Positions 7,684 to 21,970 of a DNA stretch of 22,363 bases are shown here, piece after piece (position 1 is the first letter of the stretch; every line of letters begins with the position of its first letter). Made by a program: the position numbers and the translations under genes. The notes beneath the pieces are model-generated. The model made no database searches. It saw only the letters and a program-made list of their open reading frames with translations, and was not told where the DNA came from. The DNA comes from a virus, in IMG/VR virus record IMGVR_UViG_3300035698_004619, positions 1-22,363 of that record, one strand, 5' to 3'.

Positions 7684-7698
7684 TTCATGGAGGGGGAA

Positions 7699-8013
7699 AT
7701 GAAGAGTAGATTGATGGACGATATAAAAGAAACATGGCAGGACAGGCTTAAGGAGATGGAGGAACGCCTGATTGAAAGAGAACAAGAATTGGCCCGACGC
7801 GAAAGTGAGCAGTTCCAAAAAGAGATTGCACAGAGTCGCGTCTCCGTTGCGGAAGAAAATGCCGCACTCTATAAGGGTCGTATGCAAGCGGCCGAAGGAT
7901 ATTACGGAAACATGGTCAAAGAAATGATGTTAGCGATTGGGATGTGTCCAACCTGCAAGGGTGCGGTCCCACAGCGGAAGCCATGTGACTGCGTGGTGGT
8001 GTCCCATGTTTAG
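7699..8013 (+). CDS. Coiled-coil protein with C-terminal Cys cluster
   Basis: ATG 7699 is preferred to in-frame ATG 7687 because GGAGG at 7689-7693 fits it; the product is 104 residues. Residues about 5-75 are a strong charged coiled coil (for example RLKEMEERLIEREQELARRE). The C-terminus MCPTCKGAVPQRKPCDCVVV has four cysteines in a zinc-knuckle-like arrangement. It lies between portal and scaffold, where small head-assembly accessory proteins are common. Its stop overlaps the next start. No family is recognised. Confidence 0.65.
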   Translation: MKSRLMDDIKETWQDRLKEMEERLIEREQELARRESEQFQKEIAQSRVSVAEENAALYKGRMQAAEGYYGNMVKEMMLAIGMCPTCKGAVPQRKPCDCVVVSHV

Positions 8014-8260
8014 TCGGCAATCCTCAGTAGAAGAAGAAGCTTCAAAAGAACTGGCCTCGTCGTTTGGTGACATACAAAGATTTTACGCTTGGAAGTATTT
8101 GATGGGTGAATTGGTCCGGATGAAGTCGAAAGCGGTTGACGATATAGACAAGGTTCCGATCGACAGTTTGACGGTTCAAAGGATTGCTCAGGCTCGCGGG
8201 ATTCGGAAGTGCATCGACGACATCATGAAAAAGATCGAGTACGCGAAAGAGGGTGTATGA
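8006..8260 (+). CDS. Hypothetical helical protein between portal and scaffold
   Basis: The frame opens at 7937, but ATG 8006 is the sensible start because it overlaps the upstream stop by a few bases, giving 84 residues. The protein is helical and charged (FSRQSSVEEEASKELASSFG, later IDKVPIDSLTVQRIAQARGI) with one cysteine. No strong binding site precedes it, so it is probably coupled. Similar small proteins of unknown role are often found after phage portals. Confidence 0.6.
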   Translation: MFSRQSSVEEEASKELASSFGDIQRFYAWKYLMGELVRMKSKAVDDIDKVPIDSLTVQRIAQARGIRKCIDDIMKKIEYAKEGV

Positions 8261-8337
8261 CGGATGAGGAACTTCACTTGATGGATCAGGACACGCTCAC
8301 AGAGATTTTAATTCGGGCCGGTTTGATCCGGCCATAG
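8257..8337 (+). CDS. 26-residue peptide gene
   Basis: ATG 8257 overlaps the upstream stop as ATGA, with GAGGG a few bases before it. The product begins MTDEELHLMDQDTLTEILIR and ends at TAG 8335. The acidic, then hydrophobic-amphipathic pattern is compatible with one helix. The last codons are also part of an inverted repeat (8316-8333). Confidence 0.45.
   Translation: MTDEELHLMDQDTLTEILIRAGLIRP
8316..8333 (+). repeat. Inverted repeat GGCCGG / CCGGCC
   Basis: A perfect 6-bp GC stem with 6-base loop TTTGAT spans the end of the 26-residue gene. It is followed by ATAGATTTTC, a poor T-run, so at best a weak terminator or an mRNA-stabilising hairpin ahead of the scaffold gene. Confidence 0.5.
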
Positions 8338-8391
8338 ATTTTCATACTTTGACCACAAGCCTAACAGGCCGGTCATAGGGAGGAATACACA

Positions 8392-9363
8392 ATGACAGAA
8401 CAGGAATCGGCCCTCGACGAGAAGGAAGGCAAGACTTCAGATCAAGTTCTGGACGAGATCGAAGGTAAGAAGAAGGAACTCAAGGAAACTCCGCCAGCCA
8501 ATGCGAAGATTCCGGAGCTTCAACCTATCGTAGATCCCGAGCCGGAAGATACAGTCAAAACGCCAACCGCTCCGATAGACAAGCCATCCGAAACCGAGGC
8601 ACCTTCTGCCCCGGCTGAATCGCCCGTCCCTTTCGTAGAGAAAGATAAGGCGGAGACAGAGGAATGGATGAAGAAGAAGGGATTCAAGTCGGTACAAGAC
8701 ATGGCTCGTTCCATGTGGAATCTCGAAAGGAAGCTACATAGCAAAGAACCGGGGCCAAATACGGAACCAAGTGTTCCCGCGGCCAATGCGCCAATGCCCC
8801 GTCAACCGATGCAACCAGCTTCTCAATCTGTTGAGGATGTTGCGAAACATTACGGTATCGATCCGGAAGATCTAGGAAAGATTGGCCCGGTCGCCCGCGA
8901 TATCGCGATGTCCATAGTTCAACAGCAACTCGGCCCGTTGACAGCAAGGATCAACGCCTCCGATCGAGTTATTTCGCGTAGGACAACCGTCGAGAAACTA
9001 GACTCTGACCCTGCCTTCCATGATCCCGAGGTGCTTAAAGAAATGCACGAAATCATGGAGAGCAATCCAACCAACCTAAGAAACAATCCCGCTGCGATGA
9101 CTACGGTCTTTGATACGGCCTTAAAGAACATCGGACGGAGAAAGCTGGAAGGTTTAAAACAGACTCCTACTGATAGTCCACCGACCAACGGGAGTGTAGT
9201 TCCGAAGGGACCGCCGCCGACCGCAAGGGGAGCCGGGGTGCCGAGACCAGGGAACGCATTAGGTACGGGAAAAGACAAGATCAACGAAAAGTTTGAAACG
9301 CTCCCTGTGGCAGGGATGGAAAAGGTCTTGAGGGAATTGGGACAGAAATTGGAAGATGATTGA
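8392..9363 (+). CDS. Capsid scaffolding protein (putative)
   Basis: This 323-residue acidic protein lies immediately before the major capsid gene. Residues 1-90 are Glu/Pro/Lys-rich and disordered. The middle has WMKKKGFKSVQDMARSMWNL and a helical section near VEDVAKHYGIDPEDLGKIGP. The C-terminus is a Gly/Pro linker followed by a charged helix (EKFETLPVAGMEKVLRELGQ) that could bind the capsid protein. There are no cysteines, the protein is highly charged, and the gene order portal-scaffold-capsid is conserved, all of which fit a scaffold that organises procapsid assembly and leaves later. Translation starts behind AGGGAGG at about 8376-8382. Confidence 0.8.
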   Translation: MTEQESALDEKEGKTSDQVLDEIEGKKKELKETPPANAKIPELQPIVDPEPEDTVKTPTAPIDKPSETEAPSAPAESPVPFVEKDKAETEEWMKKKGFKSVQDMARSMWNLERKLHSKEPGPNTEPSVPAANAPMPRQPMQPASQSVEDVAKHYGIDPEDLGKIGPVARDIAMSIVQQQLGPLTARINASDRVISRRTTVEKLDSDPAFHDPEVLKEMHEIMESNPTNLRNNPAAMTTVFDTALKNIGRRKLEGLKQTPTDSPPTNGSVVPKGPPPTARGAGVPRPGNALGTGKDKINEKFETLPVAGMEKVLRELGQKLEDD

Positions 9364-9397
9364 ATACCCCAGTATGCAACTAGGGGGTGAATAAATT

Positions 9398-10429
9398 ATG
9401 ACTGACTTATATACAGAAAGTGATGGGACTACTATTACAACCATGATCGGTAATTATTACGACAAGGTTTTCTTAGAACGTCTCGTTGCTAATCTGGTTT
9501 ATCAAAAGTTCGCTGTTAAGAAATCGCTTCCCCAGAATGAGGGCGATACAGTGATTTGGCATCAGCTTATAAACCCAGGAACCGGGTACACTCTAAACGA
9601 GACCGGAACCCCAGGAACAAGCGCGGTATCAACTCGCAAAGTATCTGCTTCTCAGGTATGGAAAGCTGACCTTCGCAACGTAACAACTCGGGTCGCTGCA
9701 ACTGCTGTGAACCCCGTCGTTAAAGAAACGGCGGACGCTCTCGGTTATGGCGCGGCTTTGACTGTGGACAACTACATTTCCGACGTGATCGGATTTGGGT
9801 CCGCAGCTTCGACCGGTATCGCTGATGCCAGCTCTGCAAAGTTTCCCTCGGCTTTTACTCAAGGGTTTCCCTTGTTTGAAGGTAACCGAGCTTCGACTTT
9901 TTGGGCTGCCATCGGATTGCAAAACGGTTTCTTTTCTACGGTGACAACGATTGCGCATGTGCGCAAAGCTGTTACTGAATTGAAGAAGCTCGATGCTATG
10001 CCGTTTGAAGACGGGAACTATCGCGGAATCGTGAGTCCCACGGTTTCGGATCAAATCAGGGCTGACTCTAACTTTGCGACCTGGATGGCTTACACCAACC
10101 GGAGTGCGATGGAAAGAGGACGCTTGGGCGTGATCGAACGAGTCTTGTTTGAGGAAAGTTCTCAAGCGATGACCGTCGCGGTTCTTGCTTCAACTTATTC
10201 CGGGTACGTTTCGGGTGGTGGTTCCTTGTATGGAACTCTCATCGTCGGGAAAGGTGCTTATGGCGTAACCAAATTGCGTGGACAGGACACGAAAGTCAAT
10301 ATCGTCTCAGGAGCAGATAAGAGTGATCCTCTCGATCAACGTACCTACATCGGGTACAAGATCGCAGTGGCCGCTAAGATTCTGAATCCTTCGGCTGGTA
10401 TTGTTATGACGTTCTTGGACGACGCTTAG
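9398..10429 (+). CDS. Major capsid protein, N4-gp56 family
   Basis: This 343-residue protein shows the features of the N4-gp56 capsid family: YYDKVFLERLVANLVYQKFA near residue 20, then LPQNEGDTVIWHQLINPG, then a Thr/Val-rich strand region and the long P-domain-type helical part (VNPVVKETADALGYGAALT). The family has an HK97-like fold and forms the icosahedral shell. A late MERGRLGVIERVLFEESSQA stretch is followed by strand-rich C-terminal sequence. No cysteines are visible. AGGGGGT upstream of ATG 9398 is a good ribosome binding site. It is the last gene of the head block before a strong hairpin and the sugar cassette. Confidence 0.92.
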   Translation: MTDLYTESDGTTITTMIGNYYDKVFLERLVANLVYQKFAVKKSLPQNEGDTVIWHQLINPGTGYTLNETGTPGTSAVSTRKVSASQVWKADLRNVTTRVAATAVNPVVKETADALGYGAALTVDNYISDVIGFGSAASTGIADASSAKFPSAFTQGFPLFEGNRASTFWAAIGLQNGFFSTVTTIAHVRKAVTELKKLDAMPFEDGNYRGIVSPTVSDQIRADSNFATWMAYTNRSAMERGRLGVIERVLFEESSQAMTVAVLASTYSGYVSGGGSLYGTLIVGKGAYGVTKLRGQDTKVNIVSGADKSDPLDQRTYIGYKIAVAAKILNPSAGIVMTFLDDA

Positions 10430-10435
10430 AAAAGA

Positions 10436-10487
10436 TTTCTAAAGTCCTCTCCGACCTGATTTCCCCCAGGCGGAGGGGCTTTAGAAG
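10436..10487 (+). terminator. Strong hairpin after the major capsid gene
   Basis: TTCTAAAG (10437-10444) pairs with CTTTAGAA (10479-10486), and CCTCTCCG (10446-10453) pairs with CGGAGGGG (10471-10478), with one bulged T. A further CCTG/CAGG can close the top. It is stable but followed by GATAAAAGG rather than a T-run, so it may be an mRNA 3'-end stabiliser or partial terminator that sets high capsid and lower cassette expression. Confidence 0.55.
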
Positions 10488-10500
10488 ATAAAAGGAAAAG

Positions 10501-11238
10501 ATGAAAAGTTTAATTATAGGCAGAGGCGAAGTAGGAGAAGCATTGTTCGAGGTCATCAAACCTTACCACACGACGTTCATCCGGGACGTTGGGGAGTGCG
10601 ACCTTCCGAGCATTGAGGTGATGCATATCTGTTTCCCGGACAGCGACAATTTTGTTTCAGAGGTTAAGCGGTATCAGAAGAAATACAAACCAGATTTGAC
10701 GATTATCCATTCTTCGATCTCTGTTGGGACTACCGAAGAGATTGGGGGCCATATCGTTTATTCCCCGGTACGCGGTCGGCACCGGCCAAAACTTTCGGTG
10801 GAATTAAAGTTCTTCCCAAAGTTTATCGCCAGTACGATTAAGAAAGATTCTGACATGGCCGCGAAATACTTTAAAGAGTGTGGATGGGATGTTTTCTGTA
10901 CGAGAGACATAGCAGGAACCGAGTTGGTCAAGATGCTGTTCAATATCCACATGGGCATTGAGATCGCTTGGGCGCAGGAAGTTGACCGGATCTTGAACCA
11001 TTTCAAGGCGAACCCGTCAACGTATGAAAAATGGGAAGAGGGTTACAACGCGGGATATTTCAAATTGCTCCAACCTCATTTGATGCGGCCTATCATGAGA
11101 CCAGACCCGATAGGCGGGCATTGCATCTTGGAGTGTATCGAAATATTAAAGCAGCAATTCTCTTCACCAATCTTTGAGTTTGTGAGGTTAAGCAATGAAG
11201 AAGCTAAAAAAAGTTACACCAAAAAGAAAGGCAGTTAA
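10501..11238 (+). CDS. Compact nucleotide-sugar dehydrogenase-like protein
   Basis: This 245-residue protein begins MKSLIIGRGEVGEALFEVI, a Rossmann GxGxxG NAD-binding loop at residues 7-12. Residues about 139-164 (TELVKMLFNIHMGIEIAWAQ) match the central helix of UDP-glucose/UDP-ManNAc dehydrogenases. PDPIGGHCIL (Cys208) matches the catalytic-cysteine region of that family (usual form GGHCIP). The normal family length is about 400-440; here the C-terminal nucleotide-binding domain is missing and the linker is shortened. It may oxidise or bind an unusual nucleotide sugar, or be a degenerate member. Binding site AAGGAAAAG precedes ATG 10501. The 3' end overlaps the next gene by 44 bases. Confidence 0.7.
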   Translation: MKSLIIGRGEVGEALFEVIKPYHTTFIRDVGECDLPSIEVMHICFPDSDNFVSEVKRYQKKYKPDLTIIHSSISVGTTEEIGGHIVYSPVRGRHRPKLSVELKFFPKFIASTIKKDSDMAAKYFKECGWDVFCTRDIAGTELVKMLFNIHMGIEIAWAQEVDRILNHFKANPSTYEKWEEGYNAGYFKLLQPHLMRPIMRPDPIGGHCILECIEILKQQFSSPIFEFVRLSNEEAKKSYTKKKGS

Positions 11239-11449
11239 AAAGATCATCGATCCACCTGCGATGGAAATGACTCCCGCCAAGCCCTCTGTTTGTAAGACTT
11301 TGGCGAGGAAGGCAGAGAAGGCGGTTGAGGATCTTGAGGACAAATGCGCTCGCGGTGGATGCGGTCACGTTCGCCGGATGCACATCTTCAACAGGGTTAG
11401 CGAAGAGTGTCACCTCTGCCCATGCCGGGATTTTATTGAACTGAAATGA
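11195..11449 (+). CDS. Small basic protein with C-terminal zinc motif
   Basis: The start ATG 11195 is set by GTGAGG at 11182-11187, so the gene begins inside the dehydrogenase-like gene. The 84 residues comprise a Lys-rich N-terminus (MKKLKKVTPKRKAVKKIIDP) and a C-terminal Cys/His cluster: CARGGCGHVRRMH then CHLCPCRDF. Two zinc sites or one extended ribbon are possible. The stop overlaps the aminotransferase start. The role in the cassette is unclear; nucleic-acid binding would fit the basic tail. Confidence 0.65.
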   Translation: MKKLKKVTPKRKAVKKIIDPPAMEMTPAKPSVCKTLARKAEKAVEDLEDKCARGGCGHVRRMHIFNRVSEECHLCPCRDFIELK

Positions 11450-12549
11450 AAAAGAAGCCGGAGTTCATTACTTTCAGCAAGCCTGATATCTCAGAAAAAG
11501 AGATTAAGGCTGTTACTGACGTAATGAGGTCCGGTTGGTTGTCTACGGGGAAAGTGGTTCAAGCGTTCCAGTCGGAGTTCGAGGAATTCATTGGCGGCGG
11601 TTACGCGGTAGCCGTCTCGTCCTGTTCTGAAGCCCTGGTGGCCTCTCTGACGGTTGCGTGTATTGGAAGTGGTCATGAGGTTATTATCCCCGCTATGACC
11701 TTCTCAGCCGTTATAAACGCCGTTCTACAGGTGGGAGCCAAGCCGGTCCTGGTAGATGTGACGAGTTCGGGCAATATTGACCCTAATTTACTGAAACACG
11801 CTATCAACGAAAAGACACGCGGGATCATTGCGGTCCACCATACCGGCTTCCCATGCGACATGGACGAGATCCAAACGGTTGCCAAACCCTACAACTTGAC
11901 CGTAATCGAGGACGCGGCCCACGCCTTCGGTGGAACTTACAAGGGCCGGAAGATAGGGACCATCAGCGATTTCACCTGCTTTAGTTTCTATCCGACGAAG
12001 AATATTACTTGTGGTGAGGGTGGCATGGTGATCTGTAGAGACCCCGACAAAGCCGCCAGGATTAAAACGCTTATCCTTCAAGGACTTACGATGGGTGCCT
12101 GGAAGCGGTACGGGCGGGACACGATCTGCAATTACCAAATCGAGTTCCCTGGCCACAAAGGGAATATGTCGGACATCCATGCTTCGATCGGATTAGCCCA
12201 GCTGAGACGCTGGCCGGAGCTTAAGGAACGCAGAAACAAAGTATGGCAGATTTATGAGAAGGGATTAGGGAACCATATTCCCGGCCATTCTCAACACATT
12301 TACAGCATCAAGGTTCCCAAGCGGGACGCGATGAGGCAGAAACTTTATGAGCGCGGGATTGGGACCGGTATCCATTTCAAGCCGTTACACTTGGAGCCGG
12401 CTTATAAGTTCTTGAGATACAAAGAGGGCGACTTCCCGAGAGCGGAACATTACGGGGCGACGACATTGAGTTTCCCTGTTTCCTCGGCTATGACTGAAAA
12501 GGACGCTGAGAGAGTTGTTTTGGAGGTACTAGATCTTGGAATCAAGTAA
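11446..12549 (+). CDS. DegT/DnrJ/EryC1/StrS sugar aminotransferase
   Basis: This 367-residue protein is of full family length. Visible motifs: SGWLSTGKVVQAFQSEFEEF (residues 29-48), the cofactor-side Asp in VIEDAAHAFGG (D156), and the PLP lysine K185 in CFSFYPTKNITCGEGGM. Members transfer an amino group to a keto nucleotide sugar, for example forming 3- or 4-amino sugars for O-antigens and glycoconjugates. It lies just after the dehydrogenase-like gene and before methyltransferase and glycosyltransferase genes, fitting a donor-sugar pathway. It is coupled to the preceding gene by ATGA and overlaps the next by 14 bases. Confidence 0.93.
   Translation: MKKKPEFITFSKPDISEKEIKAVTDVMRSGWLSTGKVVQAFQSEFEEFIGGGYAVAVSSCSEALVASLTVACIGSGHEVIIPAMTFSAVINAVLQVGAKPVLVDVTSSGNIDPNLLKHAINEKTRGIIAVHHTGFPCDMDEIQTVAKPYNLTVIEDAAHAFGGTYKGRKIGTISDFTCFSFYPTKNITCGEGGMVICRDPDKAARIKTLILQGLTMGAWKRYGRDTICNYQIEFPGHKGNMSDIHASIGLAQLRRWPELKERRNKVWQIYEKGLGNHIPGHSQHIYSIKVPKRDAMRQKLYERGIGTGIHFKPLHLEPAYKFLRYKEGDFPRAEHYGATTLSFPVSSAMTEKDAERVVLEVLDLGIK
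12522..12527 (+). promoter_or_regulatory. Ribosome binding site for a TTG start
   Basis: GGAGGT lies inside the aminotransferase gene, 8 bases before TTG 12536, and decides this unusual start. Confidence 0.6.
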
Positions 12550-13021
12550 GAAGATTTTCATATGCGTCAAAGGAAATGTTTTGCCGAACTATAGTTTGGA
12601 GCATGACAGCCATGAGCGGTTAATAAAAGGCTTGGGCCTGAAGGATGACAAACTGTTTGAAAGGAATTTTGTTCGGGTCCAGATATGGCCGATGGGAAGC
12701 TGGTTTGATCCGCGGGTCCGGTTTAACGGTTGGGGAGTGGGTGTGGATGATTTCGATAGTTTGCCGGCCTGGTTCGAGGAAGATCGGGATTTATGGTTCG
12801 ATCGGTGCCTGGATGAAATCGAGAAGTTTGTTGTTCCCCAAACAGTGAAAGGGATTTATCCCGGCGATCTTTCGATTCAGGACGATATTACAATCGACAA
12901 TTTAAAAAGTGTGGCAGGGAATCTTTATGTAAACGGATCGGCTGTTTTTATCGCTCCGAACCTGAAGAAGATTGGCGGGAAACTTAGTGTTTCCAGGAAC
13001 GCAAAATATGAACCTAATTGA
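12536..13021 (+). CDS. Protein with beta-solenoid/LRR-like C-terminus
   Basis: This 161-residue protein uses a TTG start behind GGAGGT. The N-terminal about 100 residues hold SSKKIFICVKGNVLPNYS and several Trp/Phe-rich segments with no family I recognise. Residues about 106-157 show a repeat-like pattern: GDLSIQDDITIDNLKSVAGN, then LYVNGSAVFIAPNLKKIGGK, then LSV. This resembles short leucine-rich or polymer-forming beta-helix coils. Such repeats often serve as scaffolds or binding surfaces. It sits between aminotransferase and methyltransferase genes, overlapping both, so it is probably part of the cassette. Confidence 0.6.
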   Translation: MESSKKIFICVKGNVLPNYSLEHDSHERLIKGLGLKDDKLFERNFVRVQIWPMGSWFDPRVRFNGWGVGVDDFDSLPAWFEEDRDLWFDRCLDEIEKFVVPQTVKGIYPGDLSIQDDITIDNLKSVAGNLYVNGSAVFIAPNLKKIGGKLSVSRNAKYEPN

Positions 13022-13634
13022 GATCGAGAAATGTTTGATTGCCATGGGCAAAGAGAACTGGAACCAGCAGAAGGATAAACTTGCTGTTGAGATTGAGCAT
13101 GGTAAGAAGTTGCACGATCAGGTTGTTGCCAAGCGGCCGCAAGTCATTGTCGAGGTTGGCACCGGACATGGCTATTCGACGGCCTGGATGCTTCTAGCTT
13201 TAGCGAATATTGATTTAGGTCACTTGTATTCGATCGATATCGAAGCATATCCAGATAATGAGCCTGTTTGGAAGAAGCTGGGCCTTTCGACTCGCCGGCT
13301 ATCTGTTATGAGGGGAAGCCTTAAACAGTTCATTGAGGTTCTACCGACCCGGATCGATATGATCTTTTTGGATTCGGACCATCAGATACATAACATCGTT
13401 GATGATATCGAGATGCTTATGCCTCATTTGACGATCGGCGGGATGATCGCGGTCCACGATGTTGCCTATATCGAAGAGATGGGGAACTGTTTAAAAGATT
13501 ATTTCCATGGGATCAATTCGGATAAATTGAATCATTGCGGAGTTACCGCGAAGCCGGATAACAAATGGATGTATGAAGAATTTAAGTCTACAAGCGGTCT
13601 GGGGATCGCGACCAAAAAAGGGGAAACAAAATGA
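13008..13634 (+). CDS. Class I SAM-dependent methyltransferase (Methyltransf_24 type)
   Basis: ATG 13008 is preferred to in-frame ATG 12972, which would overlap the previous gene more and lacks a site; AGGAA lies at 12994-12998. The 208 residues carry motif I VEVGTGHGYS (48-57), an acidic end of strand 2 in LYSIDIE (73-79), FLDSDHQIHNIVDDI (120-134), and GGMIAVHDV (144-152). This is the cephalosporin hydroxylase/Methyltransf_24-like pattern often found in glycan clusters, where the enzyme O-methylates sugars. The LDSDH and HD residues may bind a metal. The stop overlaps the next start as ATGA. Confidence 0.85.
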   Translation: MNLIEIEKCLIAMGKENWNQQKDKLAVEIEHGKKLHDQVVAKRPQVIVEVGTGHGYSTAWMLLALANIDLGHLYSIDIEAYPDNEPVWKKLGLSTRRLSVMRGSLKQFIEVLPTRIDMIFLDSDHQIHNIVDDIEMLMPHLTIGGMIAVHDVAYIEEMGNCLKDYFHGINSDKLNHCGVTAKPDNKWMYEEFKSTSGLGIATKKGETK

Positions 13635-15298
13635 CAATAGAGCTACAAAAAGAGCCGTTAATCTCATTCATCGTGCCGGTCTACAAGGTTGATAAGGACT
13701 TGTTTAATCGGTGCCTCATGAGCTTGATCAAACAGGATTATAAAAACTTTGAAATCATTTGCACGTTTGACGGGGTGGACCCGGAACTGCTTAAGGTGGC
13801 GACCTCGTTCCATAAAGATAAACGGGTACGGATCATTGAGATCAAACACGCCGGCGCACCTGCGGCGCGAAATGCTGGGTTCGAGGCTTCCAAGGGTGAG
13901 ATCGTTTCCTTTTTCAATAGCGACTATATCGCTAAACGGGGGATGACTCGGACCTGGATCGATGAGCTTCAGACTCATCCGGATTGCGGGTTCATTTACG
14001 GAGCTTACGAGTACGGGACCAAAGACCGGGCCTGGTATCCTTCTAAAAAGTTCAACCCCTGGGAATTGAAACAGGCAAACTATATCGATTGCGGGTTCCC
14101 GATTTGGAGGAAGCACGTTGTTAAATGGGACGAGAATTGCAAGAGCCTTCAGGATTGGGATTTCTGGTTGCGGGTTGTGTTCGGAGATCCGGTCGAGGAA
14201 GATGTTAAGGTCAAAGGCCATTTCCTTGGACGAGAGATCAGCTTTGTTGCTCAGGTTCCGTTAGAGGGTGGTCTCTCTTATGACTCGGAAGATCATTGGA
14301 TTGAACGGGTTTTATATATCAGGGAGAAGCATAGGATTTCCACATCTCAGATGGTTGTCACTTCGCTGGGTGCGCCTTATCATGGGACCGAGATCGCCAA
14401 GATGATCGGGGCCGATTACCGGGATGACACGATCTTCAAAAAGAACGAATACAAAGCAATTTACATGATCGGGTTTTATACCAAGCCAACGGATGAGGGG
14501 AACCCTCACGCCCAGGTATTGCAGAGATATGATAAGCAGGTCAAGATCGTCCATTTCGTTGGTGCTGATATTTACTGGTTAAGGAAGTTCACGCATGAGG
14601 ATCTGAAGTATATCGCCGGTGCGCTGAATCTGAAGGTGGATCATATCCTATGTGAAACGGACCTGGCTCAGAAGGAATTGGAAGAGATGGGAATACATAG
14701 CAAGGTGGTCCCGATCTCACCGTATCAGGATTTTGATATTACTCCGCTTCCGGAAAAGTTTAGCGTTGCGATTCTTTTAACTGATAAAAGCGATTTCGAT
14801 AAATACTGCAAAGAGAAAACCTTATCGATTGTTCGGGCGATGCCTGACGTACAGTTTCAGGCGTATGGAGACGGATGCAAGAATCTGATTTATCCGAATA
14901 TCAAACACGCCGGGAATCTCAACAAAGAGGATTGGAAGAAATTTGTTTACGGGAATTCCTGTTTACTGAGGATTGTTAATCACGATACCCGGCCGATGGC
15001 TTCAGATGAATTCATTATGGCCGGGCGGGATGTGGTAACAAATGTCCCGACGGCTTATATGGAATACATCAAGACCGGCGGAGACGTGGATCGGAACGAA
15101 TGGGATACGTTTGCGTCTCGTCTTTCCTACACTCAATGGCCGTCAACGAAGAAGAAGATCGTTCAGAAGGTTCGAGAGGTTAGGAAGGCTCAGCCGTATA
15201 GTCTGAACCGGAGAGAGAAAGCCAGTCAATATTTCAAAGACGTTTTGAATAGAGAGAAATATATTCACACGATTAAAACATTGGGGGGAACACTATGA
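13631..15298 (+). CDS. Bifunctional-looking GT2 - GT-B glycosyltransferase fusion
   Basis: This 555-residue protein has two parts. Residues about 8-240 are a GT2 (GT-A fold) domain: ISFIVPVYKVDKDLFNRCLM, FDG at 46-48, and APAARNAGFEASKGE leading to FFNSDY. The usual metal-binding DxD is Asn-Ser-Asp here (96-98). WDFWLRV near residue 176 fits the acceptor-side W-D motif. Residues about 240-540 look like a GT-B (GT4-like) half: IVHFVGADIYWL, ILCETDLAQKELEEMGIHSK, VVPISPYQDF, then a Rossmann-like C-part ending in MASDEFIMAGRDVVTNVP, where the Glu would contact the donor. It could add two sugars or one domain may be inactive. It lies in the methyltransferase/glycosyltransferase run and is coupled by ATGA. 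Confidence 0.85.
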   Translation: MTIELQKEPLISFIVPVYKVDKDLFNRCLMSLIKQDYKNFEIICTFDGVDPELLKVATSFHKDKRVRIIEIKHAGAPAARNAGFEASKGEIVSFFNSDYIAKRGMTRTWIDELQTHPDCGFIYGAYEYGTKDRAWYPSKKFNPWELKQANYIDCGFPIWRKHVVKWDENCKSLQDWDFWLRVVFGDPVEEDVKVKGHFLGREISFVAQVPLEGGLSYDSEDHWIERVLYIREKHRISTSQMVVTSLGAPYHGTEIAKMIGADYRDDTIFKKNEYKAIYMIGFYTKPTDEGNPHAQVLQRYDKQVKIVHFVGADIYWLRKFTHEDLKYIAGALNLKVDHILCETDLAQKELEEMGIHSKVVPISPYQDFDITPLPEKFSVAILLTDKSDFDKYCKEKTLSIVRAMPDVQFQAYGDGCKNLIYPNIKHAGNLNKEDWKKFVYGNSCLLRIVNHDTRPMASDEFIMAGRDVVTNVPTAYMEYIKTGGDVDRNEWDTFASRLSYTQWPSTKKKIVQKVREVRKAQPYSLNRREKASQYFKDVLNREKYIHTIKTLGGTL

Positions 15299-15309
15299 GT
15301 CCGAAAGTA

Positions 15310-15867
15310 TCATTGTTTTTGAAAACAATGCGACCAGTGTTTTCCTTGCAAAATAAAGCAGACATGGCTCCGACAAATATTGAACTGAGTCGCTATCTCG
15401 CGTTGTTTTTTGCCAAGGTTTCTAAGTTTATGAATTGTTTTTATATCTTTTGTGGTAAGTCTTGCGTTGTGATGGCTACTACCGCGAGGCATCCTCTTTC
15501 GGTCTGCGGCATCACCCATGTTCTGGGCTTGGGTTCCTGCGTAAAGATGCTTTGGATTTACACATTTCGGATTATCGCAATGGTGGCAAATAAACATACC
15601 TTCCGGGATTTTTCCGTTCAACAATTCCCAGGAATAGCGATGGGCCAGTATTCTTCCGAATCGTTTACCATTGCTGAGCCTTCCGTATCCACTATGGTTC
15701 ATGGGGCCAATCCAATTCCAGCATTTATGAGTTTTATGCACATGGCGGAAAAATCTTTTCTTAAGTGGTGGGATAGGATATTTCCTTGTTCTCATGATAT
15801 GCCCAGGCTTAAAACTGCTTTCTTTTCTTTTAACATGGATTCCACATCCACATTTACAAAGTTGCAT
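15310..15867 (-). CDS. HNH homing endonuclease (HNH_3 plus HTH), antisense
   Basis: This is the only clear - strand gene. The frame opens at 15900, but ATG 15867 is chosen because GAGGAGG (15877-15883, - strand) lies 9 bases upstream; it gives 185 residues. Order: CKCGCGIHV near the N-terminus, a small knuckle. Next is WNWIGPMNHSGYGRLSNGKR. The HNH core follows: AHRYSWELLNGKIPEG (H76), CHHCDNPKC and NPKHLYAGTQAQN. Last is a C-terminal helix-turn-helix: LTTKDIKTIHKLRNLGKKQR then FNICRSHVCFILQGKHW. This is the domain order of free-standing phage HNH homing endonucleases. It sits between two glycosyltransferase genes that otherwise would abut, so it is a recent mobile insertion by inference. Confidence 0.9.
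   Translation of the reverse strand: MQLCKCGCGIHVKRKESSFKPGHIMRTRKYPIPPLKKRFFRHVHKTHKCWNWIGPMNHSGYGRLSNGKRFGRILAHRYSWELLNGKIPEGMFICHHCDNPKCVNPKHLYAGTQAQNMGDAADRKRMPRGSSHHNARLTTKDIKTIHKLRNLGKKQREIATQFNICRSHVCFILQGKHWSHCFQKQ
15311..15330. repeat. AT-rich inverted repeat at the 3' end of the HNH gene
   Basis: CATTGTTTT and AAAACAATG are perfect 9-base arms separated by TG. The repeat covers the last codons of the HNH gene and lies near the left boundary of the presumed insertion. It could be a weak terminator for the - strand gene or a recognition-type palindrome. Confidence 0.6.
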
Positions 15868-15876
15868 AATTTTGTT

Positions 15877-15883
15877 CCTCCTC
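15877..15883 (-). promoter_or_regulatory. Ribosome binding site of the HNH gene
   Basis: GAGGAGG on the - strand, 9 bases upstream of ATG 15867, sets the start; the longer frame to 15900 would contain this site inside the gene. Confidence 0.65.
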
Positions 15884-15923
15884 ATTACGGGTTGGAACAT
15901 AATACTAAATTATTGGGGGAAAT

Positions 15924-16616
15924 ATGAAAAATCCACTCCTGTCTTTTGTCGTGCCGACTCGCGATAGGATCGAATGGGTCGCTGAGTGCGTAAGCGGTTT
16001 GCTCGCGCAGACAGTTGAAGAGATCGAGGTTGTCATTGTCAATGACGGTTCGACTGATGGGACCAAGGAATTTCTAAATGAATGGCTGAGTGAGAATAAG
16101 CGGGTCCAGGTTTATCACAATGAGAAGTCGATTGGAGGCGGCCTATCGAGAAACAAGGGAATCGAATTGGCGAAAGCTCCGATTATCGCGGTCTGCGATG
16201 ACGACGATTGTTATCCAGTGCAGCGGGCGGAGCGGGTTATCGAGTTCTTCGAGAAATATCCAAAGGGCCATATGATGACGGCCCCTTATGTTCGGATCGG
16301 GTACGAGAATGACGTTCTCGAATACTTCAACGGTGAACATTTCAATGAGAAGCTTTTCAGGGAAACGGGATCAGTGAACTACTTTTGTCATCCGGCCTCC
16401 GCTTACACCAAGGAAGATATCCTTCAGATTGGCGGATACAAAGCTGAGACGAATCTTCAGACGGATGATCTTCAGCTTGTTCACGATTGGATTCACGCGG
16501 AGAAGAAGATCACGATTCAGGATGGCGAATATCTTTGTATGCACAGAGTCCTTCCAGTTTCGATGATGGTTCGGATGAGAGGGTTCAAAGAAGAGTGGGC
16601 AGGTAAGAAATCATGA
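15924..16616 (+). CDS. GT2 family glycosyltransferase
   Basis: This 230-residue single-domain GT-A enzyme shows PLLSFVVPTRDRIEWVAECV at the N-terminus, NDGSTDG (40-46) for nucleotide binding, GGGLSRNKGIELAKAP, and an intact metal site in VCDDDDCYP (D92-D95). QTDDLQLVHDW near 189-199 is the catalytic-base region. The length is at the short end for the family but all core motifs are present. It would add a sugar from a nucleotide donor. It starts behind a GGGGGA-type site and ends in an ATGA overlap with the next gene. Confidence 0.92.
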   Translation: MKNPLLSFVVPTRDRIEWVAECVSGLLAQTVEEIEVVIVNDGSTDGTKEFLNEWLSENKRVQVYHNEKSIGGGLSRNKGIELAKAPIIAVCDDDDCYPVQRAERVIEFFEKYPKGHMMTAPYVRIGYENDVLEYFNGEHFNEKLFRETGSVNYFCHPASAYTKEDILQIGGYKAETNLQTDDLQLVHDWIHAEKKITIQDGEYLCMHRVLPVSMMVRMRGFKEEWAGKKS

Positions 16617-18601
16617 GCCAAATGGAAGAAAAAGAAATCTTAACTAGGGAGCAGATGATCCATTCTCATGAGGATTACCGAGATATAATGCCACAGGGTA
16701 TAGAGGCGTATCCGTTTACCCAATCGAGGATTCTACCGATCATTTACGAGATCCCGGAAGGCGCGAAGGTCTTGGATATCGGATGCAACTCAGGTGAGTT
16801 CATGCGTCTCCTGGCTGAGAAGAGGCATTGTGACGTAACAGGGGTGGACGTTTCGGCCCCGGTCCTTGAGATCGCGAAGAAGAAAGGGCTTAAGGTTGTC
16901 AAATGTGATGCTGACAAATTGCCTTTCCCCGACAAAACCTTTGACGTTGTAACACTTATGGAGACATTGGAACATTTCAATGACCCGATCCCGTACCTAA
17001 AAGAGATCCGGCGGGTTCTGAAAAAGGATGGCGTTCTCTTGGGTTCATGCCCGCACAACAATCTTGAGCGGCACGTTTGGTCCGATGATCGGCTCCATTG
17101 CCAGTATTATGACGAGAACGGATTAAGGAGCGATTTGGATAAGGTTTTCAAAAAGTCTTATATCCGATCCTTGAATGGGACAGAATTCTCGATGTCGTTT
17201 GCTAATAACTTTCTGCAAAACGAACCGGTAGAATTGCTTTTTAAAGCCGGCGGCAAGATGATCGACAAATGGGAAGCTGAGATGCGGAAGGAAAAGAAAC
17301 TCCGCGTTTGGTTTGGGTTCACTCAGCTTTCAGGAACGATCTACTATAGGATGCGGGGGTTCGCGGATAAGATGCACAGTTACGGAGTCGAAGCGGCCTA
17401 TGAATATTTCAATTATGACGGTTCCGAATCACAAAGTGATTGGCAGAACCGGGTTGTTTACCCTTTGCATGACGGGAAATTTGAGTGGTCAAAATGGCTA
17501 CTGGACAACTTCTTTCAAAGGCTCTTAACGGTGGCTCATATGTCGGTTTGGCAGATCGCCGGAAATCGGTTCGTCTTGGCCTTCCTTCATTGCATCAAGG
17601 GCGTTTTCAAGAAACCGGTTGTTACCGAAGTCGATGATTGGCTTTTGGATATGCCGGCCTACAATATCGCGTCTCATCCGTTTAAGCCGAATTCGGAATC
17701 GGAATGGATTGCGATGGAACAGTTAAAGCTCTCAGATGCTTTGATTGTTTCGACTCAGTTCATGATCGACCATTTGAAGCCTATCTTTCCCGATAAGCCA
17801 ATGCACTTGATTCCTAACGGGATCGATTTCGATATCTGGGATAACCTGGATAAACAGCTTGCGCCTGAGATCAAGGGAACTGAGAAGGCTCCCGGCGTGG
17901 TCCGGATCGGGTACACAGGTTGCGGGAACCATATCGGAGACCTGAATCTGATTAAGCGACCTCTTTTGAAATTGCTAGAAGAGTTCCCTAATTTAGATTT
18001 CATGATATCGAACCGGTTCCAGATCGGAGAACTTAAGCTCTGGGCTGATATCGACCATCCGCGGATTAAGTATTTGGAACGCTGGGTCATGATGGACCGG
18101 TTCCCTTATGAGATCAACGCCTGGAAGATGGATATTGGGGTGGCGCCTTTGAGAGACAATAATTTTAATTGCTCAAAGTCGAACCTTCGCTGGCTTGAGT
18201 ATTCGGCTTTGAAGCTCCCGACGGTTGCCAGCCCGGTTTATCCGTTCAAGAACAGCATTGAGGAAGGCAAGACGGGCCTTTTGTGCAACTCTGAACTCGA
18301 ATGGTACGAGGCTTTGAAGAGTCTTATCCTAGATGAACAGAAGAGGAAGATGCTTGGCGGGAACGCTTATCTAAAAGTGAAACAAGATTTCAATATGGAA
18401 ACAATTACGAAGAAGTACGCAGAAGTTTTGAAGGGGATCAAAGGGGAACATGGGAGGATCGAATTATGCAACGATCAGAAATCGAGACCGAGTGTGGATA
18501 CCTGCTTGGCGACCCCCGTCATACAAGATGGTCAACAACCAAACTTAGAGAACGGATCGAATTTGCTCAACAGCAAGTCCAAGCCCTTACCGGTGCGATA
18601 A
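16613..18601 (+). CDS. SAM methyltransferase - GT4-like glycosyltransferase fusion
   Basis: This 662-residue protein has a Methyltransf_11-type domain at about 1-190, with motif I VLDIGCNSGEF (53-63), GVDVSAP, LPFPDKTFDVVTLMETLEHF, then LKKDGVLLGSCPH. The second part, about 225-620, is a GT-B glycosyltransferase: KKLRVWFGFTQLSGTIYYRM, VTEVDDWLLDMPAYN, LIPNGIDFDIWD, VRIGYTGCGNHIGDLNLIKR, and MDIGVAPLRDNNFNCSKSNL with EYSALKLPTVASPVYPF as donor site. Fusion of methylation and sugar transfer suggests a methylated glycan or chain-end capping. The frame runs 136 bases into the next gene; the last about 45 residues (rich in Asn, Gln, Ser and Pro) look like non-homologous tail, so the natural end was probably near 18470. 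Confidence 0.88.
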   Translation: MSQMEEKEILTREQMIHSHEDYRDIMPQGIEAYPFTQSRILPIIYEIPEGAKVLDIGCNSGEFMRLLAEKRHCDVTGVDVSAPVLEIAKKKGLKVVKCDADKLPFPDKTFDVVTLMETLEHFNDPIPYLKEIRRVLKKDGVLLGSCPHNNLERHVWSDDRLHCQYYDENGLRSDLDKVFKKSYIRSLNGTEFSMSFANNFLQNEPVELLFKAGGKMIDKWEAEMRKEKKLRVWFGFTQLSGTIYYRMRGFADKMHSYGVEAAYEYFNYDGSESQSDWQNRVVYPLHDGKFEWSKWLLDNFFQRLLTVAHMSVWQIAGNRFVLAFLHCIKGVFKKPVVTEVDDWLLDMPAYNIASHPFKPNSESEWIAMEQLKLSDALIVSTQFMIDHLKPIFPDKPMHLIPNGIDFDIWDNLDKQLAPEIKGTEKAPGVVRIGYTGCGNHIGDLNLIKRPLLKLLEEFPNLDFMISNRFQIGELKLWADIDHPRIKYLERWVMMDRFPYEINAWKMDIGVAPLRDNNFNCSKSNLRWLEYSALKLPTVASPVYPFKNSIEEGKTGLLCNSELEWYEALKSLILDEQKRKMLGGNAYLKVKQDFNMETITKKYAEVLKGIKGEHGRIELCNDQKSRPSVDTCLATPVIQDGQQPNLENGSNLLNSKSKPLPVR

Positions 18602-19203
18602 GGCAAGTCAATACTTACACGCCTGTTGTAGACACCAAAGAGGTGACGGTCGGGACCGACATTGTAGATATCACGCGGGTTACGCTTACTGATTCGGATG
18701 GCGATATCCTTCCATTGGAAGGCAAGTCGCGTGTCGATTGGGACTTCTATTATCCTGATTGGGAGAACGAGGATTCCGGCAAACCGCGAGAGTTTTCTTA
18801 CGATGCGTCCAATAATCAGATAATCCTAAGACCTAAACCTTCCTCCGATTATACCGTTGCCGATTCCTTGAGAGTATGGGAAGTCAATATCCCAACAGCT
18901 TTAGCCGGCTCCACATCCGAACCATTTGAAGCAAACCAGGCTATGCAAAACTACGCGATGTCGATTGTTCATTGGGTGGTCGCTCAGTGTTTCCAAGATG
19001 ACGGGACTCCGGAAGCGTTAGGAAAATCCAGGTTCCACAGATCAAACAACGTGGACAGCCCTGGCGAATTCGAGAAATGGATTAAGCTCATCAATTCAAA
19101 ATTCAATACGGTTACTTCGATTCCAGCTAGGCTTAAATGGTATCCACAAGGCGGGCGGGTAGGTGGAATAGGCCGGCGATCGAAGAGCAACCCATTAGGA
19201 TAA
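18466..19203 (+). CDS. Head-tail adaptor/connector protein (putative)
   Basis: This 245-residue protein starts at ATG 18466 behind GGGAGG (18452-18457, 8 bases). The N-terminal helical part (CGYLLGDPRHTRWSTTKLRE, RIEFAQQQVQALTGAIRQ) is followed by strand-rich sequence (VDTKEVTVGTDIVDITRVTL and DASNNQIILRPKPSSDY) and a late helix (QNYAMSIVHWVVAQCFQDD) before a basic tail. This helix-strand-helix layout matches phage adaptor proteins that dock under the portal ring in podoviruses. Its position before the tail/stabilisation gene supports this. It resumes the structural module after the sugar cassette. Confidence 0.75.
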   Translation: MQRSEIETECGYLLGDPRHTRWSTTKLRERIEFAQQQVQALTGAIRQVNTYTPVVDTKEVTVGTDIVDITRVTLTDSDGDILPLEGKSRVDWDFYYPDWENEDSGKPREFSYDASNNQIILRPKPSSDYTVADSLRVWEVNIPTALAGSTSEPFEANQAMQNYAMSIVHWVVAQCFQDDGTPEALGKSRFHRSNNVDSPGEFEKWIKLINSKFNTVTSIPARLKWYPQGGRVGGIGRRSKSNPLG

Positions 19204-19207
19204 AATT

Positions 19208-21970
19208 ATGAAGAAAATATTATTCGGATCAATTCTCTTTCTCGGGCTGGCTGGTTTAATCCAAGCCCCGTTACAAGCCCAGGACTATGGTACGAAGGTC
19301 GTTGCTCCATTCGGGACTCTGAATAATACTGATAACTCGGTTATTCTCCCGGACCACATGGCGCAGGATCTTCTTAACGTCGATATCACAAAGCATGGAT
19401 CGGTAAAAAAGAGAGAAGGTTATGGGCTGGCGTATACAACGAACCATACAACCTCCCCGATCCATGGCGTTTACCATTTCTACGATACCGGCGGGAATAA
19501 CGTCTCCTTGTTTTTCAATGATACGGATATGATTTCCGAGGTTAACGGAATAATCCGAACATTGTTTACAGACCAAACTTTTGGTTCAACGTACCAATGC
19601 ACCGATTCGGAAGGGTACGCTTATTGCGTTAATTCAAATAATGACGGTTTGTTTAAAACGGAGGGGTTAACCTACACATCAATGAAACCCGTCTCGACCG
19701 GGACGATGATTACCAGCACAGTGGAACGTCTTGTTATGGCGGGTTTTTCCAATGCGCTTAACCGGATCGATGTTTCCGAAGCTAATGACTTTTCCGATTG
19801 GACCCCCGCGAGTGCGCCGACGGACCCGATCCAGTTTACAGTCGTTTCTCCTGGTTCCCAGATTCTTCATATTACCTATGCCTTCGGTCGGATCATGTGG
19901 TTCAAGTCGGACAGCTTCGGTTATATCCTGGAAGGGCAGACCCAGGCCGATTGGACGCTCCGGATCGTTTCCCACATTACCGGGACGTTAACGAATACCT
20001 CTGTTTACCATAACGGAATCCTTTATTTCCAAGGCCAGGACAGCCACATTTATGCTTATGACGGGGCCAGATTGACGAAGTTAAGTTTAGATATTGCGAC
20101 CACGATAGATTTCTCTCAACAGAGAACTATCAACGCTTGGTCTCAAACGACTCAAGGCGATTGGGAATCCGGTTCAGTTTCTACGCCGACTTGGCTATCG
20201 ACAACCCTTTCTCCTGGTTCGGTTGTGTTGGCTACAAATACGATGGTTGCTGATTTTGTCGATTCAGTTTCGACTGATTTTAATGCTGGAACAAAAGTGG
20301 ACACGCAGGTATATTTTGCTAATAAACTTTCGCTTGAGAGGAATTTAAATCTGACGATATCTTCTTTTACCGATAATACTGGATCTGAAATTCTTTACTA
20401 CACGTTCTCGAATTCTATATTTCAGTCATTTATTGCGTCTGACGACATGATCTTTAGGTCGGCTAAACTTTATTTAAAAAAAACACTCCCGGCTTCAGAT
20501 GGGACAGTTTATCTTATGGCGGATAATGCGGGGGAACCGGGGGATATCCTTACTTCTGTTGTTTTTCATTTTACCCGAGTTGGTAGCGCGGTATCGTGGA
20601 TAGCTATTGATTTCCTTCTATCAGGAGAAGTCCCTCTTGTTGCTGGAACAAAATATTGGATTGGGGTATACGCTCTTGGTCCTTCGATTAGCTGGAATTA
20701 TTGTGATTCCGCGACGGCGTGTGTTCCAGACGGGAACCCTGTATGGGTTAATGGGGTACAATCCACTTCCCAACAAATGTTGCTTGATATCGACACTGGG
20801 CAACAATATGATACAAGCGGGACTTTTGTTTCTCAGATTTTTGATGCTGAATCTGATTCGAGTACCTATCGATGGGAGTGGGATGAAGTTACGATTGGCG
20901 AAGATGAACCCGTCGGATCAACAATAACTTATCAGATTCAAACGTCTACAGCTAATGATGGCGGTTGGGAAGCATTGACATCTATCGTATCGGGTGCAAA
21001 GCCAACGTCCAGCGTTAGTCAGTATATTCGATATAAGGCGACCCTTCAGGGTACGAAAACGCTAAGTCCTTTTCTTGAAGATTTTACGATTTCTATGTCG
21101 TCAAGGATTCGACCAGGAGCGACGTTTTACTCTGCCATTAGGAACGCAGATGACATTGTTTCTTGGTTAAAATTTGAAGCTGACAAACAAGACAATGACG
21201 GGACTCATACTTTTTCGATTCGGTCCCATGCGACATCCTTCCCCATACTGTCCTCGACGATCTCTTGGACATCTATATCTCCCGGTGACGTTCCGACTGT
21301 ATCAACGGCGGCATACTTCCAGGTCAAGGATGAATTCAGCACAACGAAGTCAACCCAGAATCCCAAGCTCGATAGCTTCTCGCTTCGATGGTATGAGGGA
21401 ATCGTTACGGATAAGTCGTATGCGATTTATTTCAAGGATGCTATCTGGTGGTCTGTTGCTTCAGGTGCCGGTGTTTCAAACAATAATTACATCCTCCGGC
21501 TCGACCTTGTGAATAAGGGTTGGACCCTGTACGACATAGGAAACAATGGGATGTATGTTAAGAACACAGCCCTTTATTTTGGGTCTCCTACCTCCGGTTA
21601 TATTTATCAGTTTGGTGGAGCGAACGACGATAACGGTTCGGCTATCAACGCTTATTGGAAATCAAAAGATTATCCTGCTACCAGCCTGTTTACCGAGAAG
21701 GAATTCAATAAACTTTCCATTGCCGCGGGGAGTGTCGTCTCGTCCACTGTTACGATCACATACGAGATTGATGGGAGTTCTTCGACGGCTTACGATATTC
21801 CCCTAGAAGATGCTAATTCGGATTTCATTAAACACAACCGAAACTTGGCCGGTGGTCAAGCTGGGCAGACCATTAATTTCAAGGTTGGAAACAATGCCAC
21901 TGAGCAACCCTTTGAGATATTCGGGATACAGTTTGGATTTAGATCAAAACCTTGGAGGCCAACGGAATGA
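19208..21970 (+). CDS. gp10-like tail/DNA-stabilisation protein with signal peptide
   Basis: This 920-residue protein starts with a Sec signal peptide: MKKILFG, hydrophobic residues 8-20, and a likely cut after A24 (PLQA-QDYG). Mature sequence begins like phage stabilisation/tail-hub beta-propeller proteins (DHMAQDLLNVDITKHGSVKK, REGYGLAYT), followed by repeated blades such as YAYDGARLTKLSLDI. Residues about 345-530 look like an inserted carbohydrate-binding or anchor-type beta domain (VYLMADNAGEPGDILTSVV, GTKYWIGVYALG). A propeller-like part resumes near 750 (YAIYFKDAIWWSVAS). The only four cysteines are in two close pairs, C131/C140 and C499/C505. The usual family member (P22 gp10) is about 470 residues. 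It would close the portal or form the tail hub; export is unexpected. Confidence 0.75.
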   Translation: MKKILFGSILFLGLAGLIQAPLQAQDYGTKVVAPFGTLNNTDNSVILPDHMAQDLLNVDITKHGSVKKREGYGLAYTTNHTTSPIHGVYHFYDTGGNNVSLFFNDTDMISEVNGIIRTLFTDQTFGSTYQCTDSEGYAYCVNSNNDGLFKTEGLTYTSMKPVSTGTMITSTVERLVMAGFSNALNRIDVSEANDFSDWTPASAPTDPIQFTVVSPGSQILHITYAFGRIMWFKSDSFGYILEGQTQADWTLRIVSHITGTLTNTSVYHNGILYFQGQDSHIYAYDGARLTKLSLDIATTIDFSQQRTINAWSQTTQGDWESGSVSTPTWLSTTLSPGSVVLATNTMVADFVDSVSTDFNAGTKVDTQVYFANKLSLERNLNLTISSFTDNTGSEILYYTFSNSIFQSFIASDDMIFRSAKLYLKKTLPASDGTVYLMADNAGEPGDILTSVVFHFTRVGSAVSWIAIDFLLSGEVPLVAGTKYWIGVYALGPSISWNYCDSATACVPDGNPVWVNGVQSTSQQMLLDIDTGQQYDTSGTFVSQIFDAESDSSTYRWEWDEVTIGEDEPVGSTITYQIQTSTANDGGWEALTSIVSGAKPTSSVSQYIRYKATLQGTKTLSPFLEDFTISMSSRIRPGATFYSAIRNADDIVSWLKFEADKQDNDGTHTFSIRSHATSFPILSSTISWTSISPGDVPTVSTAAYFQVKDEFSTTKSTQNPKLDSFSLRWYEGIVTDKSYAIYFKDAIWWSVASGAGVSNNNYILRLDLVNKGWTLYDIGNNGMYVKNTALYFGSPTSGYIYQFGGANDDNGSAINAYWKSKDYPATSLFTEKEFNKLSIAAGSVVSSTVTITYEIDGSSSTAYDIPLEDANSDFIKHNRNLAGGQAGQTINFKVGNNATEQPFEIFGIQFGFRSKPWRPTE

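What the first reader, a model, noticed from the sequence alone, without database searches (positions are those of the whole stretch)
10501..18601. Sugar-synthesis, glycosyltransferase and methyltransferase cassette embedded in the capsid module
About 8 kb between the capsid gene and the adaptor gene encode a nucleotide-sugar dehydrogenase-like protein, a DegT aminotransferase, two methyltransferase domains, and four glycosyltransferase domains (two GT2 and two GT-B type). Coupled overlaps link most of them to one transcript with late structural genes. Known phage glycan genes usually modify host O-antigen or DNA. Placement in the structural operon and the late timing it implies make virion (capsid or fibre) glycosylation an attractive hypothesis.
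Basis: partly seen in the sequence, partly recalled or inferred. Interest (0 to 1): 0.7.

Follow-up and report, generated by a model that had tools for sequence, protein, structure and literature searches.

The report
Phage glycan cassette fixed beside capsid
A group of uncultured short-tailed phages carries sugar-attaching enzymes fixed between the capsid gene and the tail-adaptor gene, in nearly every genome we could check, which suggests that these phages coat their own particles with a sugar structure they build themselves.

Summary
Between the major capsid gene (9398-10429) and the SU10-type adaptor gene (18466-19203) lie a truncated nucleotide-sugar-dehydrogenase-like gene, a DegT aminotransferase, two methyltransferase domains and four glycosyltransferase (GT) domains, mostly with coupled overlaps.

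A blind search with only the GT-B domain found 104 viral relatives. Of 65 non-redundant loci among the best 80, 54 lie in a phage structural module. The usual order is capsid - variable sugar genes - GT2/GT-B fusion - GT2 - GT-B - adaptor - nozzle-position gene. The reverse search, with a capsid protein only 28% identical to the window's, gave 26 of 26 usable contigs with the GTs downstream. The GT genes share the phylogenetic signal of the structural genes and evolve under equally strong purifying selection. No GtrA, Wzx or thymidylate-synthase-type pyrimidine hydroxymethylase was found in 30 related records.

Best explanation: soluble, late, phage-encoded enzymes build a partly methylated glycan on a virion protein. 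This works like chlorovirus capsid glycosylation and mycobacteriophage virion glycosylation, by enzymes not closely related to those tested. The glycan itself is not shown. It is a new variant of a known kind.

The parts
9398..10429 (+). major capsid protein (SU10/phrog_1357 type), left border of the cassette
   Evidence: phrog_1357 E 3e-32; dN/dS 0.076 against G001
10501..11238 (+). truncated nucleotide-sugar dehydrogenase-like protein; conserved Lys144 and Cys208 (GGHCI motif), no C-terminal NDP-binding domain; optional member
   Evidence: TIGR03026 E 5e-8; family alignment; PDB matches to UDP-sugar dehydrogenases E 5e-5
11195..11449 (+). small Cys/His-rich (zinc-ribbon-like) protein; comparable small ORFs after the capsid gene in several close relatives
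   Evidence: reading of sequences; recurs in only 7 of 44 wider loci by motif
11446..12549 (+). DegT/ArnB-like PLP sugar 4-aminotransferase, PLP-lysine region intact; optional member
   Evidence: PF01041 E 9e-108; closest solved structures are ArnB
12536..13021 (+). protein of unknown function, optional, seen in window, G001 and G002 only
   Evidence: no family match; homologues
13008..13634 (+). class I methyltransferase (Methyltransf_24), optional member
   Evidence: PF13578 E 1e-19; start moved to ATG 13008
13631..15298 (+). core gene 1: GT2 (GT-A) fused to a GT-B domain
   Evidence: PF00535 E 2e-20; model pLDDT 78; Foldseek GT-A and GT-B matches
15310..15900 (-). HNH homing endonuclease inserted antisense between core genes 1 and 2 (not a cassette function)
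   Evidence: PF13392 E 2e-12, phrog_1872 E 4e-30; at other sites in other relatives
15924..16616 (+). core gene 2: stand-alone GT2 glycosyltransferase with CDDDD motif
   Evidence: PF00535 E 1e-30; alignment A4
16613..18601 (+). core gene 3: Methyltransf_11 fused to a GT-B glycosyltransferase (GT4-like region, invariant K-S and E)
   Evidence: PF08241 E 1e-25, phrog_7162 E 1e-21, alignments A2 and A8
18466..19203 (+). SU10-type adaptor, right border; start overlaps core gene 3
   Evidence: PF24175 E 6e-14
19208..21970 (+). protein in the nozzle position, with Sec-like signal peptide
   Evidence: position and conservation; the gene in the same position in L130 matches phrog_8040 head closure Hc3; no direct family match

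Best explanation
The cassette is a phage-encoded virion-glycosylation pathway built into the late structural operon. Three core proteins (GT2/GT-B fusion, GT2, GT-B) work in the host cytoplasm and assemble a short glycan on a virion protein that is conserved across the lineage, most likely the major capsid protein or another head or neck subunit made from the same transcript. Methyltransferases cap sugars. The optional dehydrogenase-like and DegT enzymes supply or modify the outer sugars (probably an NDP-4-amino sugar), so the outer part varies between phages while the core stays. Shown here: gene content, intact motifs, constraint, predicted solubility, fixed location and shared phylogenetic signal. 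Inferred: late expression, that the acceptor is a virion protein, which protein it is, and the sugars.
For: (1) Two-way linkage: GT-B-only search -> 104 relatives; of 65 clusters among the best 80, 54 have a capsid, portal, adaptor or nozzle-position neighbour, 31 have the adaptor as the very next gene, 36 have the GT2/GT-B fusion within four genes upstream. Capsid-only search -> 26 of 26 contigs with at least 900 nt after the capsid gene carry GTs downstream. Curated families confirm the labels in distant members: phrog_1357 capsid and PF24175 adaptor. (2) Mantel correlations: MCP with GT2/GT-B 0.72 and adaptor with GT-B 0.72, equal to MCP with adaptor 0.71. (3) dN/dS 0.065-0.072 for the triad, as for capsid 0.076 and adaptor 0.064. 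(4) No TM-type hydrophobicity except in DegT, a soluble family. (5) No GtrA, Wzx or PF00303 in 30 records. (6) A conserved core with variable added genes fits one conserved acceptor. (7) A methyltransferase is fused to either GT gene: to GT-B in the window clade, to the GT2/GT-B protein in L106 in the order GT-GT-MT, the domain order of chlorovirus A064R. (8) The closest predicted viral folds are mostly giant-virus GTs.
Against: No glycan, acceptor or sugar has been seen. No isolate of the lineage exists in the phage collection searched; the one named genome with the layout, MW202801.1, is itself environmental. Soluble GTs could also act on lipid-linked or LPS precursors. Eight of 30 records carry an integrase, so lysogenic roles are possible for some. 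Mantel tests show shared descent, which linkage alone could produce. In 11 of 65 clusters no structural gene was recognised nearby. SU10 itself and Paenibacillus phage API480 have no GT in this slot.
Confidence: 0.7

Rival explanations
1. The cassette alters a host surface glycan late in infection or in lysogeny, blocking superinfection or stopping progeny from re-adsorbing to debris.
For: Many phage GTs do this; generic PHROG hits to GtrB-like O-antigen GTs; 8 of 30 records have an integrase.
Against: No GtrA or Wzx in 30 records; no membrane GT in the cassette; the core triad is constant across phages whose capsid proteins share about 28% identity and which probably have different hosts, where surface glycans should differ; location fixed to the capsid-adaptor slot.
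Confidence: 0.14
2. The enzymes glycosylate phage DNA to resist restriction.
For: Phage GTs commonly do this; methyltransferases and HNH genes are present.
Against: No thymidylate-synthase-type hydroxymethylase in 30 records; genes sit with the capsid and not with replication genes. The records are not certified complete and other hypermodification routes exist.
Confidence: 0.05
3. The cassette is passing cargo in an insertion-prone spot of the structural operon, with diverse substrates.
For: UGDH, DegT, Methyltransf_24 and HNH genes come and go; G004 has UGDH and DegT homologues upstream of terminase instead.
Against: The triad keeps its order and descent over most of the lineage, and GT genes are present in 26 of 26 capsid-recruited contigs; purifying selection equals that on capsid genes.
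Confidence: 0.08

Closest known systems
Mycobacteriophage virion glycosylation (Freeman et al. 2023, as cited in PMC12619734)
   Same: Tailed phage encoding several GTs; glycans on capsid and tail-tube subunits are reported there.
   Different: In Che8, annotated GTs gp108-110 lie near the genome end, outside the structural genes. gp108 and gp109 share only the generic GT2 domain with the triad (E 2e-11 and 3e-6); gp110 gave no match; none matches the GT-B gene. No sugar-nucleotide or methyltransferase genes are annotated next to them.
Chlorovirus PBCV-1 capsid glycosylation: A064R, A111/114R (PMC9614988, PMC7826918)
   Same: Mostly soluble, virus-encoded, multi-domain GTs, one of them fused to a methyltransferase, glycosylate the virus's own capsid protein without host organelles; conserved core glycan with variable outer sugars and methyl caps. 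L106 has the same GT-GT-MT order.
   Different: Eukaryotic algal virus; PBCV-1 GT genes are expressed early; homology to the A064R domains was not tested; DegT and dehydrogenase genes are not part of the described A064R pathway.
Podovirus ctQWt234 (MW202801.1, Manatee Spring)
   Same: Capsid - [radical SAM-type, GT2, PhyH, methyltransferase, NodB-like, GT-B] - SU10 adaptor; GT-B 27% identical.
   Different: Lacks the GT2/GT-B fusion and has different sugar-modifying enzymes; function not tested by anyone as far as was found.
Streptomyces phages Zuko and KimJongPhill
   Same: Cultured phages with a homologue of the GT-B gene (Zuko E 1e-61) just upstream of the terminase (Zuko).
   Different: Siphovirus-type tail genes; a single GT, not between capsid and adaptor.
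Escherichia phage SU10
   Same: Same order of terminase, portal, scaffold, capsid and adaptor.
   Different: The capsid-adaptor slot holds one Ig-domain gene (gp10) and no GT.

Membership tests
SU10-like structural module | SU10 portal, phrog_1357 capsid and SU10 adaptor in order | tested here: met
   PF23899 E 6e-10, phrog_1357 E 3e-32, PF24175 E 6e-14
Virion glycosylation system of a tailed phage | phage-encoded glycosyltransferases with intact motifs under constraint | tested here: met
Virion glycosylation system of a tailed phage | glycan covalently present on virion proteins and lost when the GT is removed | not testable with these tools
   needs mass spectrometry and knock-out
Mycobacteriophage-type virion glycosylation (same enzymes) | GTs homologous to Che8 gp108-110 | tested here: not met
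   only generic GT2-domain similarity for gp108 and gp109; no match for gp110, none to GT-B
Chlorovirus A064R-like enzymes | GT-GT-methyltransferase domain order | tested here: inconclusive
   order met in L106 but not in the window, where the methyltransferase is fused to the N-terminus of the GT-B gene; homology to A064R not tested
GtrABC O-antigen conversion cassette | GtrA flippase and membrane-bound GtrB/Gtr | tested here: not met
   PF04138 absent in 30 records; no TM-type segment in the cassette GTs
Phage DNA glycosylation pathway | thymidylate-synthase-type pyrimidine hydroxymethylase supplying the acceptor base | tested here: not met
   PF00303 absent in 30 records, control genomes positive
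UDP-sugar 6-dehydrogenase | three domains including the C-terminal NDP-binding domain | tested here: not met
   245 aa, ends soon after the GGHCI motif; catalytic-type Cys and Lys kept
DegT/DnrJ/EryC1/StrS aminotransferase | full-length family match with the PLP-lysine region | tested here: met
   PF01041 residues 14-360, E 9e-108; region aligned with ArnB

The most novel reading that the evidence does not exclude
In this lineage the glycan is an obligate structural part of the particle, made by a dedicated core triad and standing where SU10 has an Ig-domain gene. That would make these tailed bacterial viruses a prokaryotic counterpart of chloroviruses, with their own conserved capsid-glycan core.
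Probability: 0.3. Interest if true: 0.82.

Novelty: new variant of a known kind. Interest (0 to 1): 0.62.

Why it matters
Virion glycosylation in tailed phages is shown, in the papers available here, only for mycobacteriophages. If confirmed, this lineage would show that it can be ancient, conserved and built into the virion gene module across many environmental podoviruses. It would give unnamed phage glycosyltransferases a testable role, and a model for how a glycan affects capsid stability, adsorption or recognition.

Tried and rejected
Lysogenic O-antigen conversion and DNA glycosylation were tested by family searches and found without support. The plus-strand ORF 15295-15927 was rejected as a gene (dN/dS 1.0; antisense HNH). 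A universal zinc-ribbon partner after the capsid gene was suspected but found in only 7 of 44 loci. A structure of the nozzle-position protein was predicted but unusable (pLDDT 45), so no fold search was made; a sequence search against the PDB found nothing convincing for it. A broad capsid alignment had no searchable motif, so a sub-clade was used instead. A GTDB scan with the GT2/GT-B family found only one weak GT2 match, in Chitinophaga, so the host stays unknown. The crude signal-peptide rule gives false positives on GT2 proteins (12 of 40), so its hits were also read by eye. The Freeman 2023 paper was not held.
Full report
WHAT IS THERE. The window is a 22,363-base virus record with the structural module of an SU10-like podovirus: large terminase 4004-5485, portal 5494-7683 (PF23899), scaffold 8392-9363 (by position), capsid 9398-10429 (phrog_1357), adaptor 18466-19203 (PF24175) and a nozzle-position protein 19208-21970. 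Pfam, NCBIfam and PHROGs confirm DegT, two methyltransferase domains, two GT2 domains and a GT-B domain. The fourth GT domain, the second half of 13631-15298, has no family match, but its predicted structure matches GT-B enzymes (moderate confidence because the full-length alignment mixes two domains). The dehydrogenase-like protein keeps a catalytic-type Cys and Lys but lacks the third domain of UDP-sugar dehydrogenases; its substrate is uncertain.

CORRECTIONS. An HNH endonuclease gene lies antisense at 15310-15900, between two GT genes. The plus-strand ORF over it, 15295-15927, evolves neutrally as a protein (dN/dS 1.0), while the HNH frame is constrained. Homologous HNH genes sit at other places in relatives. 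The Methyltransf_24 gene probably starts at 13008.

RELATIVES, CLOSE. Searches with capsid and GT alignments found about a dozen contigs with capsid identity 58-94%. In every one long enough, the GT2/GT-B fusion, the GT2 gene and the methyltransferase/GT-B fusion lie in that order between capsid and adaptor. The dehydrogenase, DegT and Methyltransf_24 genes vary. Against G001 (capsid 94% identical), dN/dS of the core genes is 0.065-0.072, like terminase 0.053, capsid 0.076 and adaptor 0.064.

RELATIVES, DISTANT. An alignment of the GT-B domain alone, including distant forms, was used for a scan that knows nothing of gene context. It found 104 relatives; the best 80 were kept. After clustering at 90% identity 65 remain. 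Capsid lies upstream in 43, the adaptor is the next gene in 31, a GT2 gene is immediately upstream in 31, the GT2/GT-B fusion is within four genes in 36, and 54 have at least one structural neighbour (many contigs end too early to score all). The maps typically read portal - scaffold - capsid - variable genes - GT2/GT-B (about 500 aa) - GT2 (about 235 aa) - GT-B (about 380 aa) - adaptor - nozzle position. Minimal forms exist (capsid - 80 aa - GT-B - adaptor in L129/L130). The labels rest on iterated HMMs made here; Pfam and PHROGs confirm those that were submitted from L101, L106, L130 and MW202801.1, except that the L101 adaptor has no Pfam match.

REVERSE TEST. A capsid alignment from another branch (about 28% identical to the window capsid) recruited 34 contigs with no reference to GTs. 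All 26 with at least 900 bases after the capsid gene have GT genes downstream. The capsid branch was itself chosen from GT-bearing contigs, so this shows near-fixation within that branch, not in all SU10-like phages: SU10 has only an Ig-domain gene in the slot and Paenibacillus phage API480 has two short ORFs.

SHARED DESCENT. Distance-matrix correlations of GT genes with structural genes (0.51-0.72) lie in the range of structural genes with each other (0.41-0.90); each pair reached the permutation floor p = 0.002 (500 permutations). The triad is therefore mostly inherited with the virion genes and not shuffled in from outside.

MECHANISM. The GTs have no transmembrane-type segments, so they probably act in the cytoplasm, where virions are assembled. 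In 30 related records there is no GtrA, Wzx or thymidylate-synthase-type hydroxymethylase, while control genomes score positive; the records are not certified complete. A constant core plus variable added enzymes is what one expects of a conserved protein acceptor with a conserved core glycan and variable outer sugars. The methyltransferase is fused to the GT-B gene in the window clade and to the GT2/GT-B gene in L106, which argues that methylation acts on the same glycan. The DegT enzyme is closest to ArnB by sequence, which suggests, without proving, a 4-amino sugar. I commit to virion glycosylation at 0.7. The acceptor is not identified; the capsid protein is the first candidate because of position and copy number only.

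COMPARISON. It works like chlorovirus capsid glycosylation, where soluble virus-encoded multi-domain GT and methyltransferase enzymes build the capsid glycan (PMC9614988, PMC7826918), and the closest predicted viral folds to the GT2/GT-B protein are mostly giant-virus GTs. Within tailed phages it resembles mycobacteriophage virion glycosylation (Freeman 2023, known here only through PMC12619734), but the Che8 GTs are elsewhere in the genome and share only generic GT2 similarity. It is not a member of the mycobacteriophage enzyme set by the tests made; homology to the chlorovirus enzymes was not tested. Single GTs in phage structural modules have been noted before, for example gp41 of Cellulophaga phage phi18:1 (PMC11946311), discussed there in terms of LPS or DNA as known targets. 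No paper describing this conserved arrangement was found in five literature searches on it.

Noticed in passing
19208-21970 and 21952-22338; homologues in L063, L065, L075, L078, L095, L097, L101, L102, L108 and others: The nozzle-position protein and the next tail genes begin with Sec-like signal peptides (for example MKKILFGSILFLGLAGLIQAPLQAQ). By a crude rule 12 of 36 nozzle-position proteins are positive, against 0 of 34 portals and 2 of 44 capsids. The rule has false positives, but many sequences look canonical by eye. Export signals on tail proteins are unusual and unexplained.
   Followed up: partly
15310-15900 (-); L002 14556-15146 and 17735-18229; L008 9504-10082 and 11810-12292: HNH endonuclease genes sit antisense between glycan genes, at different junctions in different relatives, and mimic a plus-strand gene by a shadow ORF.
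   Followed up: partly
1124-1459: An ORF of 111 aa made almost only of Gly-Ser-Gly-Phe/Tyr repeats in a G+C-richer stretch; function unknown.
   Followed up: no
record G004, 7428-9455 of the reverse-complemented sequence used: In one relative the UGDH-like and a DegT homologue lie upstream of terminase and not behind the capsid gene, so the sugar-supply genes move independently of the triad.
   Followed up: no
L056 (MW202801.1) 8303-12966: A distant podovirus fills the same slot with genes annotated as Fe-S oxidoreductase, PhyH, NodB-like and methyltransferase plus GTs, which suggests other sugar chemistries in the same position.
   Followed up: partly
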